In this document: positions 2,102 to 58,168 of the stretch, one piece after another
How positions within the stretch are numbered: position 1 is the stretch's first letter
Layout of the letters: each line of letters opens with the position of its first letter
IMG/VR virus record: IMGVR_UViG_3300048833_000065
Span: 1 to 63,103 of that record
DNA from: a virus
Reading direction: 5' to 3' (one strand)
Length of the DNA stretch: 63,103 nt
Notes under the pieces: generated by a model
Told to the model about the DNA's origin: nothing
The model's database searches: none
The model's input: the letters and a program-made list of their open reading frames with translations, nothing else
Program-made: the position numbers and the translations under genes

Positions 2102-2560
2102 TCACTCGCTCATGATCTGCGCGGCGTGCTTTTGATTTGCACGATCATCGCAGCACCGCTGGCAAACCTTCGTGCCACCGACGTCGTTCTTCTTCGTCCA
2201 GTCGCGCCCAGGCACGTCGAGCGGCTCGCTGCAATCCGCGCAGCGACCGAGAAGACCTCCCTGCTGATGCCAGCGCTCCGCAAGGCGATCCGATCCAAAG
2301 CATGCGGCGGGCGCGCCGTTGTAAAAGAGCTTCACCCACCGGACAAGAGCGGTCTGGTTCTCTTCGTCACCATGACGAACAGCTTGGAAGAGGTCGCTTC
2401 TGGCGACGGCATAGAGGAAGTCTCCCGGCCTGATCCCCCACAAGACCCAACGGCAGAACGCGCCGCGCATGTAGTCAGGGACGCGATAGAGAAGGGCGTC
2501 GGTGCGGTCGTGCCAATAAAGCGGATATGCCGCAATGGCGGTTTCATCATCGATATGCAT
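2102..2560 (-). CDS. phage protein with C-terminal zinc-ribbon, 152 aa
   Basis: The N-terminal part (VPDYMRGAFCRWVLWGIRPG, then FLYAVARSDLFQAVRHGDEEN) matches a common phage hypothetical family that limits itself to about 80 residues. Here it continues into a zinc-ribbon-like module with CADC and CQRC pairs (about residues 107-136). It lies directly downstream of the DnaA-like gene (start/stop overlap at 2560). A role in early DNA metabolism is inferred from position only. Confidence 0.7.
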   Translation of the reverse strand: MHIDDETAIAAYPLYWHDRTDALLYRVPDYMRGAFCRWVLWGIRPGDFLYAVARSDLFQAVRHGDEENQTALVRWVKLFYNGAPAACFGSDRLAERWHQQGGLLGRCADCSEPLDVPGRDWTKKNDVGGTKVCQRCCDDRANQKHAAQIMSE

Positions 2561-2994
2561 CAGACCAGAACTCCCTTGATGGCTGCGATCTTCGACGCGA
2601 GGCGCGCGGGGTTCGCTTCATGCTTCTGGCGGGCGTGAACCATCGAGGAATGGTCACGGTTGAAATAGCGCGCTGCGCACGCGCCACTGATATGAGGAAC
2701 GACCTCGCGGATAGCGAGGTATGCCGCCGTCCGCCATGCAACTACCTCCGCGATGCGGCTTTTGCTGATCAAAACCTCGGCGCTGATTTGCGACGCCACC
2801 TCTGCCGCGTTGACGACGGCTTTTGCGCTCGGTTTCCCATGCGGCGCGAGCTTGATCTTGGTGCCGGGAAGAAGAACCCACTTCGGTTGGTATTCGTCCG
2901 CCCTGAGAAGAAAGCTTTTCTTCACGTAGACGCTCGGCAAGGGAATGGACTTTAGGCGACGCCCCTCGCGGATAATCTCTGTACTCATCGTCAT
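2560..2994 (-). CDS. protein resembling DnaA domain IV (DNA-binding)
   Basis: A 144-residue product. Its C-terminal half (about residues 70-125) resembles the duplex DNA-binding domain IV of DnaA: an ISKSRIAEVVAWRTAAYL helix, then ISGACAARYFNRDHSSMVHA. The latter parallels the DnaA signature in which G-R-D-H-T-T-V-x-H-A contacts the DnaA box. The AAA+ domain of DnaA is absent. The start at 2994 follows a CCACGGAGCA motif (3001-3010). Its neighbours are the DUF6362 and primase/helicase genes, so a role in origin recognition, or in modulating host DnaA, is inferred. Confidence 0.75.
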   Translation of the reverse strand: MTMSTEIIREGRRLKSIPLPSVYVKKSFLLRADEYQPKWVLLPGTKIKLAPHGKPSAKAVVNAAEVASQISAEVLISKSRIAEVVAWRTAAYLAIREVVPHISGACAARYFNRDHSSMVHARQKHEANPARLASKIAAIKGVLV

Positions 2995-3013: not shown

Positions 3014-3292
3014 TTAGTTGATCGTGTGCTTGGTGGTCTTCTCGCCTACAGTCTGGATCAGTCCACTTTCCAATCCTCCATTCATGACCAGTTGAAAGAG
3101 AAACCCGTAAAGCTCGCGGCGCTCGGCGGGAGGCGTGATCGCGAGAATGTCCATCGCGACCTCGACCATGCTTCCGAAGATATGAACGCCGCCCGCGTGC
3201 GTGATCTTGTTTGCCTCCTTCGCCCCGTTCTCTTTCGCCCACTTCTGAACGAGAGCGAGCAATTGACAGTGGAGGCATTCTTTGTCGCTCAT
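3014..3292 (-). CDS. hypothetical protein, 92 aa
   Basis: Starts MSDKECLHCQLLALVQKWAK with a CLHC pair near the N-terminus, then a mostly helical sequence. It overlaps the DUF6362 gene by 4 nt and ends about 20 nt before the start of the DnaA-like gene. No family was recognised. Confidence 0.65.
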   Translation of the reverse strand: MSDKECLHCQLLALVQKWAKENGAKEANKITHAGGVHIFGSMVEVAMDILAITPPAERRELYGFLFQLVMNGGLESGLIQTVGEKTTKHTIN

Positions 3293-3834
3293 GGCATCAC
3301 CTGATCCCGCATGAGGCCAAGGGCGATGGTGAGCAAAGCCCGATCCCTCACCCGATAGCTCGTCGCCTTGCTCCACCGCTTCCGCTTGATCGCCTCGCTG
3401 AACTTCCTGCCGCGCGTGACCTTGCAGCGGAGCCAGAGGGCGAGGACGCGGCGCTGCGCTTCGTGCTGGTCGCCGCCGAGATAGGTTGCCGCCCATGAGA
3501 TCGCGGCGGTCATCTCGGAGACCTCGCGGGCCGTCGCCGTGTAGCGGCGCGGCTCCTTGTCCTTGCCGATCTCGTCTGTCTCGACCTGTCCCAGGAGGTC
3601 GCCCCAATCGCGAAGGATCGAAGGCCAGCCCACGGCGCGGTCGGACGGACGGACGGGACCACCGATCCGGTTGCAGAGCCTGACGGCGGCGACGAGCCGC
3701 TTGGCGACCATGTCGACGGTCCAGACGTGATCGGGAGGGAGATCGCGAACCGCTGCCGCGATCTGGTCGAGCAGGGAGACGGTGACGCCTTCCATATCGC
3801 TGACGACGGTCTTGGCTGCGCCCTTCCTTGTCAC
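3289..3834 (-). CDS. DUF6362 family protein, possible DNA-binding replication factor
   Basis: The C-terminal ~100 residues (EVSEMTAAISWAATYLGG, then RRVLALWLRCKVTRG and KRKRWSKATSYRVRDRAL) match the DUF6362 family as I remember it. The helical, Arg/Lys-rich C-terminus with WSKATSYRVRDRA looks like a helix-turn-helix DNA-binding region. I place the start at the GTG at 3834 because AGGGGG lies 5-6 nt upstream and because the sequence further upstream holds a regular repeat array. An ATG at 3957 that overlaps the primase stop is the alternative and would add 41 residues. A role in initiation at the adjacent iterons is inference. Confidence 0.75.
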   Translation of the reverse strand: MTRKGAAKTVVSDMEGVTVSLLDQIAAAVRDLPPDHVWTVDMVAKRLVAAVRLCNRIGGPVRPSDRAVGWPSILRDWGDLLGQVETDEIGKDKEPRRYTATAREVSEMTAAISWAATYLGGDQHEAQRRVLALWLRCKVTRGRKFSEAIKRKRWSKATSYRVRDRALLTIALGLMRDQVMP

Positions 3835-3848
3835 GCCCGCCCCCCTTT

Positions 3849-3944
3849 TGTGACGAGGGAGGGCGCTTTGCGTGACATGATCGACTTCCAGAGTGACAAT
3901 TCCGAAACCAAGCGTGATAATTTCCAGCGTTTCCGTGACATTTG
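3849..3944 (+). repeat. five-copy iteron array, 21-22 bp period
   Basis: Direct repeats with core GTGAC(A)(T)TT begin at 3850, 3872, 3893, 3914 and 3935, spaced 22, 21, 21 and 21 bp, i.e. two helical turns. The best copies read GTGACAATT, GTGATAATT and GTGACATTT. The array lies between the stop of the primase gene (3954) and the Shine-Dalgarno-supported start of the DUF6362 gene (3834). Such spacing and position fit a replication origin with iterons, or a multi-site operator. Confidence 0.65.
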
Positions 3945-3953
3945 TCGCCCGCC

Positions 3954-6116
3954 TCATCCGGGGAAGTCCGAGAGATCGATCTGCTTGCCGAAGGGAACCA
4001 CGTTCGATCCCTCCGCATCCGCCTGCGGCTCGACAGGCGAAGCATCGCCGGGGCGGCGGAAGCCGCGCACCCTCTTCCCGGTCAGCCAGATGAAAGGCGA
4101 CACCCGCCCGATGATCTGCCGGGACATGAGCCACTCCCCATGCCGCTTCATCGCCTGCCGGATCTTCGCCGCCTTCTTCTCCGGGTCCGTCTCGCCGTCA
4201 GCTTCAAAGGTCATGGCCTCGAAAGCCGCGCGAACCTTCTCGCCGCGCACCACCTTGAGGGACGCGGGAAGCTCAAGCGACGGCGGCGGTGTCTCGCCAT
4301 GATCTTCGATGGCCTTGTAGATCGCCCGGAGGAAGCTCTCGCACTGCGGGGAGAGCTTGATGGAGGGATCGACGGTCGCGAGATCGACCTCGGCCATGCG
4401 GCCCCGGTTCGGCGGCACAATCACGCAGGAGGAAATCTCGTCACCCTCGGTGTCCTTGCCGAGAAGAACCTTCTTGAGGACGAACTTGATCGACTTGCCG
4501 TCCTCGCCATCCTTCTGCTTCGTCACCGTCGCCTCGCGGACCAGACGCTCGTCAAGATCGGAGTTGCCTTCGAGCTTCCTGATCGTGATCACGTTGTCGA
4601 GGTTCGCGAAGATGCTCGTATGACCGCGCGGCTTCGCGCCGCCCGCGTTCATGTGATGGACGATCATCACATGGCAGCGGCATTCCTCCGCGATGCGGGC
4701 GCAGCGCGCGAGGACCACACTCATGTCCTCCGATGTGTTTTCGTTCGCTCCAGGCGTCGCGGCAGAGAGCGTGTCGATGACGACGAGTTCCAGCGGCACC
4801 GTGAAGGTCTTCGACCAGTGCCTGATCTCTTCCATGAGAAGGTTGGTCTGGTCCTCGTTGCCGTAGAGATCGACGGGCGATGGCAGGAGGACGAAGGGAA
4901 GGTCGGCGTCGCGGGCGATGCCGTGGAACTGCCGATATGCGCGAAGCCTTTTCTTGATGCCGCGCCCGCCCTCGCCCGCCTGATAGATGACGCCGCCCTT
5001 CATCGTGCGAAGCCCGAAGAAGTCCACGCCGCGCGCGATGGAGAGCGCAATGTCGAGCGTGAAGAAACTCTTTCCGGCTTGGCTCTCGCCCGCGCACATC
5101 GACCGCTCGCCGCGAGTGAGCAGGCCCTTGATCAGCCATTCATGCTCCGGTCCCGGATCATCAAGGTTCGCCCAAGGCAGAGCGTTGAAGTGCGAGCGCC
5201 ATGCGCTCTCGGGCGTCCAGACCTTCGCGCGGGCCTCGACCAGATCGTAGAGCGAGGCGGGATCGTTGCCAGCGTCGATCCAATCGGTGACGTCGCCCTT
5301 CTCCGGAAGGCCGGGAATGTCGAGGACGCGAACGCGGCGCGCGACGGTCGCGAGCTTGGAGCCGACGAGGTCACGATGCTTCCGCCCAGGCTCGTCGTTG
5401 TCGGGAAGAATGACGACGTCCGCGCCCTTGAACCACTCGCAGAGTTCATCGGGCCACTTGCCAGCGCCCATCGCGTTGCACGTCGCCGGAATGCCTTTGG
5501 CGGCAAGGTTCTCTGCGTCCTTCTCGCCCTCGACCACGAAGACCAGAACGTCCTGCGCCGTGGCCTCAATCAACTCGGTCAGCCGATATGGCACCTGTTC
5601 GACGCCCTTGACCGACCAGACCCACTCCTTGCTTCCCTCCGCGAACGGACGGCGCTGGCGGAAGGTCTTCTTCCGCACGCCGCCTTCCTCATACTCATAA
5701 CGGCAGACTTGGAAGCGGAGCGTCCCGGCCTCGTCGGTGTAGTCGTATGTCTTCGCGAGGACCGCGTTCTGCGGCACGCCGGGAGGCAGGCCATCCTGCT
5801 TGCCCTTTGCCGGGGTTTCTGTCGGTCGAGGACGGCTCTCCTGCTTCGTCGGCTCCGGACGCTCGTCTACAGCAAAGCCAGCCTCGGCAAGCCACCGCAC
5901 GGCCTCGCGGCCCTTGCAGCCCGTCTCGCGGGCGACGAGGTCGAGGACGCCACCGCCCTCGTTCACCTCGTTGTCGAACCACGCGCCCTTGTCGACGCGG
6001 ACAGACTTGCTGCCCTGCTTCCCCCACCGGAGTTCCTGCCGCGTCGAGAGATGCTTGTTCGGTTCGCCCCACAGCATCTTGGCGACCTCGGGCATCAGTG
6101 GCGTGAAGTCAGTCAC
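3954..6116 (-). CDS. Toprim primase / RecA-like replicative helicase
   Basis: A 720-residue fusion. The N-terminus (about 30-80) resembles the non-catalytic end of phage primases. A Toprim domain follows, with VVEGEKDAENL (about 194-204) and VVILPDNDEPG (about 234-244) holding the metal-binding Glu and Asp. A RepA/AAA_25-type ATPase comes next, with Walker A GESQAGKS (343-350), Walker B LELVVIDTLSA (D448) and the downstream IVHHMNAGG sensor. The start is a GTG at 6116 that overlaps the methyltransferase stop by 8 nt. It should prime and unwind phage DNA at the fork. The adjacent iterons suggest the origin is close by. Confidence 0.92.
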   Translation of the reverse strand: MTDFTPLMPEVAKMLWGEPNKHLSTRQELRWGKQGSKSVRVDKGAWFDNEVNEGGGVLDLVARETGCKGREAVRWLAEAGFAVDERPEPTKQESRPRPTETPAKGKQDGLPPGVPQNAVLAKTYDYTDEAGTLRFQVCRYEYEEGGVRKKTFRQRRPFAEGSKEWVWSVKGVEQVPYRLTELIEATAQDVLVFVVEGEKDAENLAAKGIPATCNAMGAGKWPDELCEWFKGADVVILPDNDEPGRKHRDLVGSKLATVARRVRVLDIPGLPEKGDVTDWIDAGNDPASLYDLVEARAKVWTPESAWRSHFNALPWANLDDPGPEHEWLIKGLLTRGERSMCAGESQAGKSFFTLDIALSIARGVDFFGLRTMKGGVIYQAGEGGRGIKKRLRAYRQFHGIARDADLPFVLLPSPVDLYGNEDQTNLLMEEIRHWSKTFTVPLELVVIDTLSAATPGANENTSEDMSVVLARCARIAEECRCHVMIVHHMNAGGAKPRGHTSIFANLDNVITIRKLEGNSDLDERLVREATVTKQKDGEDGKSIKFVLKKVLLGKDTEGDEISSCVIVPPNRGRMAEVDLATVDPSIKLSPQCESFLRAIYKAIEDHGETPPPSLELPASLKVVRGEKVRAAFEAMTFEADGETDPEKKAAKIRQAMKRHGEWLMSRQIIGRVSPFIWLTGKRVRGFRRPGDASPVEPQADAEGSNVVPFGKQIDLSDFPG

Positions 6117-7617: not shown

Positions 7618-8162
7618 GCCCTTGCTCCTTTCTCGAAAAGCGGCGTGCGGAGATGCGCGATCTTCGGGTTCCGCACGGCGGCGACATAATCAAAGCCCGC
7701 AAGCGCATCGGCTGCGTTGTCATCCTTCGGCTCGTATCCAAGCTGGCGGCAGCGCGCGATGACGGCGCGCTTTCCATCTGCGCCAGGCAGATTGCGACGA
7801 CCGATGAAGTGCTGCCGAATGTCATCGACGCGCGCTTCAAGGACCGAGTGAATGCCCATCCTGTTGCAGACCGCTTCTGTGATGGCGGGAAGGCCCATCA
7901 GCCGCCGCGCGGTGTCCACCGTGGTTTTGCCGCGAAGGAGCGATGGCGGAAGCGGTGCTTCGAAGGCCACGACGCGCGGAGAGTGGACCGCGATCATGTC
8001 GTGCAGCCACTTGAGGAAGTTGCCAAAGACCTCGCTGCTTGGCGCGCCTGACGGCGCGAGGCGCTGCGATCCGGAGATCGGCTTGCCGCCGATGGGACCG
8101 ACTGCCCATCCAGTGACGGTTGCGAGGTCAAGAAACAAAAGCGTCTCGACGCGGTCAGTCAT
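7614..8162 (-). CDS. RuvC-like Holliday-junction resolvase
   Basis: A 182-residue protein with the RNase H-fold acidic set expected of RuvC. D12 lies in LFLDLATVTGWA, E69 in RVVAFEAPLP, and D147, D148 and D152 in KDDNAADALAGFDY at the end of the domain. RuvC relatives in phages resolve branched DNA before packaging. Position between the ParB-methyltransferase and small early genes fits a replication/recombination role. Start and stop overlap neighbours by 4 nt. Confidence 0.88.
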   Translation of the reverse strand: MTDRVETLLFLDLATVTGWAVGPIGGKPISGSQRLAPSGAPSSEVFGNFLKWLHDMIAVHSPRVVAFEAPLPPSLLRGKTTVDTARRLMGLPAITEAVCNRMGIHSVLEARVDDIRQHFIGRRNLPGADGKRAVIARCRQLGYEPKDDNAADALAGFDYVAAVRNPKIAHLRTPLFEKGARA

Positions 8163-9286
8163 TTCCGGTTCCTTGCCTTCGGCTGCTCACTTGCCTCGAC
8201 ATGAAGCGGCGTGAACCCCTTGCGCGGCTCTCCCCTTGCAAACGCCTCACCAAACGGTGCGACGGATGCGCGACGGACAATCTCATAGAAGGCGTCGGGC
8301 TTCGCGCTATGCTCTCCGACTGCGGCCTCGAAATGAGACGGGATGGAGCGGTCGGTGATCGCAAGGTCGCCCTTGACCGCAAGGATGCAATGCTCCGTCG
8401 TATTGCGGAGCCACGCCCCGGCACCGAGAGAAGGCTTCACCCATGTCAGGATGCCCTTGTGCTTGAAGCCCCAATGAGCGACAAGCTCGCAAGCGAGCGG
8501 CATGTGCCAGTTCGTCGTCCAGAGCCACAGGTGACAATTCTCGTCGGCCCAATCCGGAACCGTGATCGCGCGAAGTTCCGGCGCGCGCATGGTCGCATAC
8601 TTTGGCGATCCATGATGCGCCGTTCCGCCTTCGTAGTGCCACGGCGGATCAACGATCAGCGCACGGAACTTCCCCTTCACGACGCGGACGCTCTCGACGC
8701 GCTTGCGGTCCTTCCGCTTCACAAGCTCGCCATAGGCTCCATCGACGGAGCGCGAGCGGTCCATCCGCTCGACCAGATCGCCGTAGACCTCCGGTTCCTC
8801 GCGCGCGGCCTCGACCACCTTGCGCGCCTTGTCATAGGTCATCTTCGACATGCCGACGCGAGCGGCGAGAACATCGCGGGTCTTGCCCGTAGAACCCTGT
8901 GCTAAATTGGCACCGGGTTCCTCGACCTTGACGCCCGCCTTCATCCGCTTCTTCGCCTCGGCCTCGACCTTCTCGCGGATCGCCTCGGCAATGGCGACCG
9001 CCTCGCTCGGCGTGAACTGCTTGCGGACCATGTTCTCGTCATGCTCCGCAGAGAGCATGTGATCGACGTCGATCAGGCGCGCAGGGATCGCCTTACGATC
9101 CATCAGCTTGAACGCTTCAAGGCGGCGCTGGCCGTAGACGAGGCGATATCCTCCCTTCACCTGAGAGACGCCGATGGGCTGCAAGAGGCCCACCGACTTG
9201 ATGCTCTCGACCAACGCGTCTAGGTCGCCAAGGTCTTTCCGGAACCGCTTGCCGACCGTGATGTCGCGGATGACGACCTCCATCAC
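8159..9286 (-). CDS. ParB-like / MT-A70 adenine methyltransferase fusion
   Basis: A 375-residue two-domain protein. Residues about 1-100 are ParB/Spo0J-like, with YGQRRLEAFKLM and ENMVRKQFTPSE; this fold can act as a CTPase or nuclease. A helical linker follows, then an MT-A70 methyltransferase domain with catalytic DPPW (213-216) and the downstream WLWTTNWHMP and GILTWVKPSLG motifs, which methylates N6 of adenine. ParB-MTase fusions are common in phages and plasmids, where they probably target methylation to DNA. A second, different ParB-MTase is in the late operon (55962-57341). Confidence 0.92.
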   Translation of the reverse strand: MMEVVIRDITVGKRFRKDLGDLDALVESIKSVGLLQPIGVSQVKGGYRLVYGQRRLEAFKLMDRKAIPARLIDVDHMLSAEHDENMVRKQFTPSEAVAIAEAIREKVEAEAKKRMKAGVKVEEPGANLAQGSTGKTRDVLAARVGMSKMTYDKARKVVEAAREEPEVYGDLVERMDRSRSVDGAYGELVKRKDRKRVESVRVVKGKFRALIVDPPWHYEGGTAHHGSPKYATMRAPELRAITVPDWADENCHLWLWTTNWHMPLACELVAHWGFKHKGILTWVKPSLGAGAWLRNTTEHCILAVKGDLAITDRSIPSHFEAAVGEHSAKPDAFYEIVRRASVAPFGEAFARGEPRKGFTPLHVEASEQPKARNRK

Positions 9287-11124
9287 GCGACCTCCACGCT
9301 TCCGATCATCGCCGCACGGAATGACTTACGCGCTTCCGCGACCTCACTTTCGAAGTGACGCGAGAGGCGCGCAGTCGCAAGAACCGCCGTCAAGACAATC
9401 GCGCCAAAGCCCATCTTGATCGTCAGTTCATCGCTGACGCCAAGGCTCCGCATCGACAGCGCCGCCGCAATGTGGGTTCCGACCGTCGCATAGACGACGT
9501 TCTTTGCGTGGCGCTTCGCGATATCGTGAGCGACCGAGACAGGGACATTCGGCGGTGCCTTCTCAGCAATCGCGTCAACCACACTCAGGAAAAGCGTGTG
9601 TTCCTCGTTGAAGAAGGCGACGTTGTTGTGCTGCTCGAAATAAGCCGCCATGCCGCCGACACCCAAGTCTTCGAAGACGCTCGCGCTCACCCACTCATCT
9701 CGCGGAGCATCGATAGGAACGCGCCGCTTCGACGCTGGCTTATCGCCTTCATCCTGCAAGGAGCCGCGATTGCGCGTGGACGACTGGTCGTCGTTTGCAT
9801 CGGTGCGGACGTTCTGTGTATGACCGCCGTCGTCACCAAGATCAGAGCCGCTGCGGTCGCGAGCCAGCCCTTCAATCTCGTTCCGGAACTCACGCATGAG
9901 CTTGCGGAGATAGTCCCGAATGCTGGCGCTGTACTTATCATGCTGCGGCTCAAGGGCCTTTTCAATATCAGCAACCCACTGCGGTATATTGGTCCGGACA
10001 ACATCGCAGAAATCCTCCACATCAATCAGCGTGCCGTCGCGATAGTGCAGCGCGATCCGATTGATGTCGTTGAAGGCGACGTTGTCATCAAGCTCGACCA
10101 CAATCGAAACCTGAGTGAAGGAACGAACAAGGCCCCACTTCACGGCAAGGGGCGGCCACGCTTTCGAACCAAGCGTGACCCGTCCGACGTTCCTCGAAAG
10201 ACCCGCGTGGAGGCTGTGGATTTCATTGCGCCAGACGATGCCGCCAAAGGGCGTCTGACCGCCAGTCTGGCAGGGATCAAAGCGGCGGCTATAGCCGCCC
10301 GCGTCATACTTCGTTTTGATGAAGTGGATCGTGCCGTGTTCGAAGTCGATTGCGGAATAGTTGTCGGCGTGCTGCAAAAGGCTCCGCATACCAACGAGAG
10401 ACGTCCAGCTTCCCCATCCCTTGCTGCCCTTCGAACGCGTGATGCTGTGAGCAATCTTAAGGTCGACACCGTCATCAAGATCAAAAAAGCGAAACCCGAT
10501 GGCCTGCACAAGCCAGAGAGACGAAGGAAGGGCTGCGTCGAGGAATGGCCTTTGCGTCGTGTCCTGACCGACCTCATTTCCAAGCAGCGTGACTTCGGTC
10601 CAATCTGTTTCGAGATTGATGAAATCATAAAGACCGCCAGACGCATATTCACTCGTCACGTCGCGCACGAAGCTCGTTCCAGGCACCGGATTATCAACCA
10701 AGATACGACCGACCGTCTCCGCGTCGAGATCGGCGGCGAGCGTGACCTCAAGGACACGCCCTTCGACGCAAGAGCGATAGCGCATCCCTATTGCGTTGGA
10801 GAGGATCGAAGCAATCTTTGCGCCGCGCCCGAAGTTACTGTCGACCGCGTTCCGCTTGTCGATTGCCGCGTTGATATCCGAGAATTGCAAGAGCGAGCGT
10901 AGCGTCATGCCGCCACGGTTCCAGATCGACAGTTTCTGAACGCCGCCGATGGTCGTGCCATAAATGCGAATGAGGCGCTGGCCCTTCTGCTTGTCGCGGC
11001 AACCTTCGATGCCGTTCCGGACAAGCTCGCGGATCATCATTTCGCGCGCGCCCATCTTGCACTGACGCCACGCTTCTCCGGTGGGGTTATTGATCGTGAT
11101 CGGATCAAGGTAAATGCTGGTCAA
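9283..11124 (-). CDS. GHKL-type ATPase (Hsp90/MutL/MORC-like)
   Basis: A 613-residue protein. The N-terminal domain carries the Bergerat-fold motifs: N box RELVRNGIEG (E33, N37), G1-like IWNRGGM (67-73) in place of the usual D-x-G-x-G, and G2-like NFGRGAKIAS (97-106). The missing first Asp of G1 makes ATP hydrolysis uncertain. A long middle region and a charged, Asp/Ser/Arg-rich linker (about 430-480) lead to a helical C-terminal domain. The start is a TTG at 11124 preceded by CCACGGAG. It is coupled by 4 nt to the ParB/MT-A70 gene. MORC-like GHKL ATPases are known from restriction-modification loci. Function here is unknown. Confidence 0.75.
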   Translation of the reverse strand: MTSIYLDPITINNPTGEAWRQCKMGAREMMIRELVRNGIEGCRDKQKGQRLIRIYGTTIGGVQKLSIWNRGGMTLRSLLQFSDINAAIDKRNAVDSNFGRGAKIASILSNAIGMRYRSCVEGRVLEVTLAADLDAETVGRILVDNPVPGTSFVRDVTSEYASGGLYDFINLETDWTEVTLLGNEVGQDTTQRPFLDAALPSSLWLVQAIGFRFFDLDDGVDLKIAHSITRSKGSKGWGSWTSLVGMRSLLQHADNYSAIDFEHGTIHFIKTKYDAGGYSRRFDPCQTGGQTPFGGIVWRNEIHSLHAGLSRNVGRVTLGSKAWPPLAVKWGLVRSFTQVSIVVELDDNVAFNDINRIALHYRDGTLIDVEDFCDVVRTNIPQWVADIEKALEPQHDKYSASIRDYLRKLMREFRNEIEGLARDRSGSDLGDDGGHTQNVRTDANDDQSSTRNRGSLQDEGDKPASKRRVPIDAPRDEWVSASVFEDLGVGGMAAYFEQHNNVAFFNEEHTLFLSVVDAIAEKAPPNVPVSVAHDIAKRHAKNVVYATVGTHIAAALSMRSLGVSDELTIKMGFGAIVLTAVLATARLSRHFESEVAEARKSFRAAMIGSVEVA

Positions 11125-57341: not shown

Positions 57342-57622
57342 TCATCGCCCCTCAACTTCCACCCCGGCGTGCAATTAAAGCCGGATCGAAAAAAAACAAT
57401 AAAGTCTCAAGGATCGCGAAGCGGCGGCCCCGCAGTGCGCCCGGTCGGCAGAAGGTACCTAGCCGAGAGGGGGGGGGGCGGGGGGTCGCCCCGGCCTCGC
57501 CCCTCTGCCCTGCCTTGCCCTTGCCCTGCCCTCGTCGTGGCTCGTCGTTGGCCTTGGCCTTGGTGCTGGCCCTGCCCTGCCTCTGGCTGGTGCTGGCCCT
57601 GCCTGCCCTGTTGTGGGGCTGG
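57342..57622. other. low-complexity intergenic region, possible cos/pac
   Basis: No ORF of note. It contains a run of A (57389-57396 area), a G10-C-G6 tract (57469-57485), and a pyrimidine-biased stretch of GCCCTGCC-like units including a 16-bp direct repeat, TGGTGCTGGCCCTGCC, at 57561-57576 and 57588-57603. It lies one gene upstream of TerS, so it is a candidate terminase recognition or cutting site. Nothing in the sequence proves this. Confidence 0.45.
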
Positions 57623-58168
57623 CTACTTCATCCCGCCCGACATGATGACGCCGAGTAGACGCTGTGCTTCGGTTGCGATCTGGCCGACGCCCTGCTGCCA
57701 CGTTGCGAGGGATTGGTCCTGCATCAGTTCGCGGTGGATGGATGGACCGTACATCTTCTCGATGGGCAGTCGTTTCTTGCTCGTTCGGATGAAGACGTTT
57801 CCGCTCAGGGATTTGACGACGAATGCGTGAGGGAAGTGCTGCGTCTTTCCCCACACGAATGCGCTGGTGCCTGTTGCTCCCTGCTTCGGCTTGAAGTGGG
57901 AGAGACCGAAATACTCACGTCTTCCATCGACGCGGGTTTCGAGTTTCGAGCGGGACGAGTTCCAGAACTTCGTGTTCTTGTGGACGATGCCCTTGGGAAG
58001 CGAGGTCTGCTCGACCAGGGCCTTTTTGATCTGCGTGAAGTTCTTCCTGCCGACCGAGTTCATGGCCATTGAGAAGACGCGCTTGGCAAGACCTGATCCG
58101 ACGCGGTTCACGGTTGCTTCGAACTTGATGCGTGTGTCGTCTGCTTCTTCGATGACGACGCGAGGCAT
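57623..58168 (-). CDS. minor tail protein Z-like protein, 181 aa
   Basis: MPRVVIEEADDTRIKFEATV starts the protein; LVEQTSLPKGIVHKNTKFWN, GRREYFGLSHFKPKQGATG and KKRLPIEKMYGPSIHREL follow the phage minor tail protein Z pattern (KG-I...GPS). It is the first gene of the late operon, separated from TerS by the methyltransferase. The start at 58168 has an AAGG upstream; an upstream extension lacks family similarity. Confidence 0.75.
   Translation of the reverse strand: MPRVVIEEADDTRIKFEATVNRVGSGLAKRVFSMAMNSVGRKNFTQIKKALVEQTSLPKGIVHKNTKFWNSSRSKLETRVDGRREYFGLSHFKPKQGATGTSAFVWGKTQHFPHAFVVKSLSGNVFIRTSKKRLPIEKMYGPSIHRELMQDQSLATWQQGVGQIATEAQRLLGVIMSGGMK

What the first reader, a model, noticed from the sequence alone, without database searches (positions are those of the whole stretch)
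3849..3944. Five-copy iteron array beside the primase/helicase gene
GTGAC(A)-type repeats begin at 3850, 3872, 3893, 3914 and 3935, i.e. at 22, 21, 21 and 21 bp. Regular two-turn spacing, location next to a primase/helicase, a DUF6362 protein and a DnaA-domain-IV-like protein suggests a replication origin of iteron type. That would make one of these small proteins the initiator. It could alternatively be a multi-site operator.
Basis: partly seen in the sequence, partly recalled or inferred. Interest (0 to 1): 0.65.

Follow-up and report, generated by a model that had tools for sequence, protein, structure and literature searches.

The report
Phage replication origin behind primase-helicase gene
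Five evenly spaced copies of a short DNA word just behind this phage's primase-helicase gene are most likely its replication start site, and many unrelated-looking phages carry a similar but differently worded array, apparently unannotated, in the same place.

Summary
In detail: GTGAC/GTGAT starts at 3850, 3872, 3893, 3914 and 3935 (spacing 22,21,21,21). It is the only GTGAY chain of more than two in the window. It lies in the 119-bp non-coding gap between the primase-helicase stop (3954) and the DUF6362 start (3834). On its own it is only moderately improbable (p about 0.03). Relatives settle its type. A blind scan of IMG/VR for the spaced word alone returned L166, which encodes homologs of both neighbours and has its array at the same gene end. 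Among 65 clusters of homologous primase-helicase loci, the strongest repeat cluster sits at the gene's 3' end in 34 (3.2 expected). In 7 of 14 annotated phage records it is found there too, e.g. 16 GTGACA in Rhizobium phage RHph_X2_25. The word differs between subfamilies. I read the array as origin iterons, most likely bound by the predicted winged helix at the C-terminus of the primase-helicase, not by DUF6362 (absent from most array loci; no array where it abuts the primase) or the DnaA-like protein (no homolog in relatives). The logic resembles P4 alpha and PICI Rep, with a TOPRIM plus RepA-type helicase instead. Binding and origin activity are untested.

The parts
3850..3944 (+). Array of five GTGAC/GTGAT sites (3850, 3872, 3893, 3914, 3935), 21-22 bp apart; GTCAC on the strand that codes for the primase-helicase
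   Evidence: GC 0.505 over 3850-3944 and 0.44 over 3893-3944 (lowest 1.4% of 52-bp windows) against 0.62 overall
3830..3834 (-). Inverted sixth GTGAC site, overlapping the GTG start codon of the DUF6362 gene, 20 bp from the first copy
3835..3953 (.). 119-bp non-coding gap between primase-helicase stop and DUF6362 start that holds the array; proposed origin
   Evidence: DUF6362 homologs do not extend into it
3954..6116 (-). Primase-helicase, 720 aa: TOPRIM-type primase part, RepA/AAA_25 helicase, C-terminal winged helix
   Evidence: AAA_25 E=1.8e-40; PHROG DNA primase/helicase E=9e-51 and primase families over residues 190-280; profile match to RSF1010 RepA 1g8y E=1.7e-7
4644..5198 (-). AAA_25 / RepA-type helicase domain (residues 307-491)
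4083..4349 (-). Predicted winged-helix domain (residues about 590-678), proposed iteron-binding domain
   Evidence: AF2 with 26 relatives: H-E-H-H-E-E, pLDDT mostly above 90 in the core; weak structural matches to winged helices of ORC1/Cdc6, E2F-DP, CRP
3289..3834 (-). DUF6362 protein, 181 aa, GTG start; considered and disfavoured as initiator
   Evidence: Pfam E=0.0023, below cut-off; phrog_6836 E=9e-22; 16 homologs in primase loci
2560..2994 (-). DnaA domain IV-like protein, 144 aa; considered and disfavoured as initiator
   Evidence: Bac_DnaA_C E=1.1e-6; no homolog in 139 primase loci; no DnaA box found in window

Best explanation
The array is the iteron set of the phage's replication origin, placed immediately 3' of the gene for its initiator. 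The primase-helicase binds the GTGAC sites through its C-terminal winged helix. One site per two helical turns puts the bound molecules on one face of the DNA, so that the RepA-type helicase domains assemble as a ring, the AT-richer stretch 3893-3944 melts, and the TOPRIM domain primes. Shown here: the array, its recurrence at this gene end in relatives, the domain make-up, the predicted winged helix. Inferred: binding, melting, origin activity.
For: (1) Blind scans for the spaced word alone returned L166, with homologs of both flanking genes and the array at the 3' end of the primase gene, and L137, an AAA_25 helicase gene with the array starting 19 bp after its stop. (2) In 34 of 65 primase clusters the strongest repeat cluster of the locus is at the primase 3' end (expected 3.2, binomial p 1.7e-27). 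(3) 7 of 14 annotated phage records rank this window first of about 85-125; RHph_X2_25 has GTGACA x16. (4) Of 28 GTGACR arrays with varied spacers from a second blind scan, 21 lie in or within about 0.6 kb of a replication initiator or helicase gene (types checked by Pfam). (5) Predicted winged helix at the C-terminus; helicase domain of RSF1010 RepA type. (6) Same-strand spacings cluster near 9-12 and 21 bp. (7) In L166 the primase and a gene on the opposite strand appear to converge at the array, which argues against an operator (read by eye).
Against: Close relatives with DUF6362 abutting the primase (L205, L208, L226-L232, L254, Mae-JY30) have no array there, and the checked virus records show no exact GTGAC triplet elsewhere; L208, L209 and L226 have the most similar winged helices. 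The motif-to-winged-helix correlation is not robust (hand-chosen motifs r=0.235 p=0.0015; automatic motifs p=0.05, deduplicated p=0.15). GC skew does not mark the site. No inverted second half-array as in PICIs, only one inverted site. The repeat-cluster statistic does not rank the window's own array first.
Confidence: 0.64

Rival explanations
1. Same origin array, but DUF6362 is the initiator that binds the iterons, and the primase-helicase is recruited to it.
For: DUF6362 lies directly beside the array in the window and 0.9 kb away in L166; the C-terminal part looks helix-turn-helix-like by eye.
Against: Arrays of the same word without DUF6362 in L003, L074, L137, L235, L236, L242 and RHph_X2_25; DUF6362 without an array in 11 loci.
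Confidence: 0.13
2. Multi-site operator: a phage repressor or activator binds the array to control DUF6362 and the downstream operon.
For: The array lies directly upstream of the DUF6362 start and one inverted site overlaps its start codon.
Against: In relatives the array follows the primase whatever gene comes next, or lies inside the primase gene with an apparently convergent gene behind it (L166). No promoter on the coding strand was found.
Confidence: 0.12
3. A sigma-70-type promoter reading on the + strand: GTGACA-17-GATAAT (10 of 12 consensus positions) at 3893-3921, with a weaker second at 3872.
For: 2 found against 0.0 +/- 0.2 in shuffles.
Against: It would read antisense into the primase gene; it explains neither copies 1 and 5 nor the recurrence at primase 3' ends; GTGACA and the 21-bp period produce the match by themselves.
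Confidence: 0.04
4. Chance or a relic without function.
For: 2.6% of simulated windows hold some comparable chain; the closest relatives lack the array.
Against: Position in a short gap at the gene end where relatives have arrays; same word in L166, L003, L137 and RHph_X2_25.
Confidence: 0.07

Closest known systems
Phage-inducible chromosomal islands (PICI/SaPI) pri-rep-ori (PMC6092414)
   Same: Origin with iterons immediately 3' of the gene for the replication initiator, which can be fused to a primase
   Different: PICI origins have two iteron sets flanking an AT-rich region; here five direct sites and one inverted. Helicase here is of RepA/AAA_25 type. [quoted passage not shown]
Satellite phage P4 alpha protein (as described in PMC4234260)
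   Same: One protein with primase, helicase and a DNA-binding domain that binds repeats at the origin
   Different: P4 alpha carries an SF3 helicase (own knowledge); here RepA-type. Placement of the P4 origin was not compared here
RSF1010 RepA/RepB'/RepC (PMC4234260; PDB 1g8y)
   Same: RepA-type hexameric helicase, sequence match E=1.7e-7; iteron origin
   Different: Three separate proteins in RSF1010; here one chain
Archaeal plasmid pRN1 ORF904 (PMC4234260)
   Same: Primase-helicase with C-terminal winged helix and origin just downstream of its own gene
   Different: Archaeo-eukaryotic primase and SF3 helicase; its origin is a stem-loop without iterons
Lambda-type O/replisome organiser origins (e.g. 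L093, L125, L097 here)
   Same: GTGACR sites 21 bp apart within the initiator gene
   Different: Initiator is a separate non-helicase protein with DnaB or a loader

Membership tests
Iteron-type replication origin | Directly repeated short sites at regular helical spacing | tested here: met
   5 sites at 22,21,21,21 bp
Iteron-type replication origin | Adjacent to or inside the replication initiator gene, recurrent in relatives | tested here: met
   34 of 65 clusters; 7 of 14 annotated phages; L166. Not in the DUF6362-abutting subgroup
Iteron-type replication origin | Sites bound by the cognate initiator | not testable with these tools
   needs gel shift
Iteron-type replication origin | AT-rich melting region | tested here: inconclusive
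   3893-3944 is in the lowest 1.4% of GC for 52-bp windows, but still 44% GC
Iteron-type replication origin | Supports autonomous replication | not testable with these tools
   needs plasmid test
P4 alpha-like initiator (primase + helicase + DNA-binding C-terminus) | Primase and helicase on one chain | tested here: met
P4 alpha-like initiator (primase + helicase + DNA-binding C-terminus) | C-terminal winged helix | tested here: met
   AF2 model only; structural matches weak, best E=0.17
P4 alpha-like initiator (primase + helicase + DNA-binding C-terminus) | SF3 helicase as in P4 alpha | tested here: not met
   RepA/AAA_25 helicase instead; so it may work like P4 alpha but is not a member
PICI origin | Two iteron sets flanking an AT-rich region, 3' of rep | tested here: not met
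   one direct set and a single inverted site
DnaA-dependent origin | DnaA boxes | tested here: not met
   none of the consensus boxes tried occurs in the window

The most novel reading that the evidence does not exclude
A large, so far unannotated class of phage origins: TOPRIM plus RepA-type helicase plus winged-helix proteins that recognise an iteron array at the 3' end of their own gene, with the iteron word changing between subfamilies together with the winged helix. This would be the same logic as in PICIs and P4, reached with a different helicase family.
Probability: 0.5. Interest if true: 0.7.

Novelty: new variant of a known kind. Interest (0 to 1): 0.58.

Why it matters
As far as I could find, the origin is not annotated in phages with primase-helicases of this family. 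A rule 'look behind the primase-helicase gene' would predict origins, their recognition words and their initiator for many phages, including cultured ones (Rhizobium RHph_X2_25 and RHph_Y3_1, Alteromonas PB15, Idiomarinaceae 1N2-2, Roseobacter CRP-831 and CRP-406, Salicola CGphi29) where it can be tested at once. It also bears on the published statement that the PICI arrangement is found in no other bacterial replicon.

Tried and rejected
DUF6362 as initiator: no co-occurrence with the array. DnaA-like protein: no homologs in relatives, no DnaA boxes. Array as coding sequence: the DUF6362 frame is open through it, but DUF6362 homologs do not extend there and the 22-bp step breaks the frame. 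GC skew: uninformative. Terminator scan: none. Single-sequence AF2 of the whole primase was poor, pLDDT 38. First Markov test with 20 copies was too small and is replaced. First Mantel test had a broken L235 protein, corrected; with automatic motifs the effect is weak, so I do not lean on it. The GTGAY x4 scan also returns many in-gene repeats because 21 bp is seven codons; I used only arrays with dissimilar spacers.

Full report
Observation. The five sites are present as described: GTGACG 3850, GTGACA 3872, GTGACA 3893, GTGATA 3914, GTGACA 3935. No other GTGAY chain of more than two at 20-23 bp exists in the window. In 2,522 Markov copies of the window 66 held some 5-mer in a comparable chain, so the array by itself is only modestly unlikely (p about 0.03); its place is what makes it notable. 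It fills a 119-bp gap, GC 0.505 (0.44 over 3893-3944, lowest 1.4% of windows), between the stop of the primase-helicase (3954) and the GTG start of DUF6362 (3834). An inverted copy overlaps that start codon.

Neighbours. The primase-helicase has an AAA_25 domain, matches phage DNA primase/helicase families and, as a profile, the RSF1010 RepA helicase structure 1g8y. DUF6362 matches Pfam weakly and phrog_6836 well. The DnaA-like protein at 2560-2994 matches Bac_DnaA_C. The window is an IMG/VR virus record.

Relatives, blind. One, L166, encodes homologs of the primase-helicase (40% over 415 aa) and of DUF6362, and its five-copy array lies in the last 110 bp of the primase gene, in the same orientation as in the window. 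Another, L137, is an AAA_25 helicase gene followed after 19 bp by GTGACAT x4. Other arrays lie in or beside replication initiator genes: Phage_rep_org_N (L093), DnaT (L125), HTH_36 next to DnaB (L097), a gene next to DnaB (L129), D5 (L113), Rep3 (L168). A second scan with GTGACR gave 28 arrays with dissimilar spacers, of which 21 lie in or within about 0.6 kb of such genes. About half of these belong to one HTH_36 family and several queries came from the same loci, so this is a count, not 21 independent events.

Relatives, by gene. Homologs of the primase-helicase gave 140 loci in 68 clusters. [quoted passage not shown] The word differs: GTGAC (window, L166, L003, L235, L236, L240, L242, L074, L137), CGGACA (L244-L249), GGGACA (L073, L210, L225, L234, L255), GTATGA (L013 and kin), and others. 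Sites are often in direct and inverted groups, with same-strand spacings concentrated at 9-12 and 21 bp. Of 14 annotated phages, 7 have the array as the top window of the locus, in gaps of 176-452 bp without annotated gene (for CRP-406, under a small hypothetical gene): RHph_X2_25 GTGACA, RHph_Y3_1 TGGGAA, 1N2-2 GGTACA, PB15 GGTTCA, CRP-831 GTATAA, CRP-406 CTGGAA, CGphi29 GGGACA. Seven lack it: Mae-JY30, MA12, ctyzp037, Widow, Oline, Vibrio 1256, fPoEco01.

Which protein binds. AF2 with 26 relatives models the C-terminal 143 residues as a winged helix, with confidence mostly above 90 in the core. Foldseek finds winged helices of ORC1, Cdc6, E2F-DP and CRP-type proteins, none significant alone (best E 0.17), and phage AAA/TOPRIM primase proteins, one of them significant (E 3.5e-5). 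DUF6362 and the array do not go together. The DnaA-like protein has no homolog in the relatives. A test whether the word follows the winged helix rather than the helicase domain was positive with motifs that I chose by eye (r=0.235, p=0.0015 against r=0.077, p=0.19), but weak with automatic motifs (p=0.05; 0.15 after removing near-duplicates). I count it as suggestive only.

Limits. The window's closest relatives by winged helix and with DUF6362 adjacent (L208, L226 and kin, Mae-JY30) have no GTGAC array at the site and no exact triplet elsewhere in the virus records searched. They may use another word or another origin; I did not find it. GC skew is uninformative. Nothing here shows binding or replication.

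Comparison. PICI origins lie immediately 3' of the initiator gene with two iteron sets around an AT-rich region, and the authors say that no other known bacterial replicon shares this (PMC6092414). P4 alpha binds repeats at its origin, pRN1 ORF904 carries a C-terminal winged helix and its origin lies downstream of its own gene, and RSF1010 splits the same tasks over three proteins (PMC4234260). The present case appears to be the same logic with a TOPRIM and RepA-type helicase chain. It fails the defining helicase type of P4 alpha and the two-set layout of PICIs, so I file it as a new variant, not as a member of either. Literature searches showed no paper describing origins at this place for this protein family, within the open library available.

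Noticed in passing
window 8159-9286 (-): Protein with a ParB N-terminal domain joined to an MT-A70 methyltransferase domain.
   Followed up: no
window 9283-11124 (-): 613-aa protein without PHROG or Pfam match; the N-terminal sequence (ELVRNGIEG..., NFGRGAKIASI) looks like a GHKL-type ATPase by eye.
   Followed up: no
window 57480-57640: CCCTG/GGCCTTGG low-complexity stretch, the only other 5-mer chain in the window.
   Followed up: no
L236, L238, L240, L003, L235, about 60-160 bp after the primase stop: Shared element TTATAACTAACCTA followed by a hairpin, in L236/L238/L240 framed by GTGAC and GTCAC; possibly the melting region of these origins.
   Followed up: partly
L166:1507-1595: Array lies inside the primase reading frame, so the protein tail carries a seven-residue repeat of the kind NVTxxxx.
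   Followed up: partly
L097, L103, L117, L142, L201 and kin: HTH_36 initiator family with GTGACA iterons inside the gene, read as heptads such as VTDSESE.
   Followed up: partly
L226-L232, L254, L205, L208, L083: Primase-helicase and DUF6362 genes abut, and no array was found near; where these phages initiate is open.
   Followed up: partly
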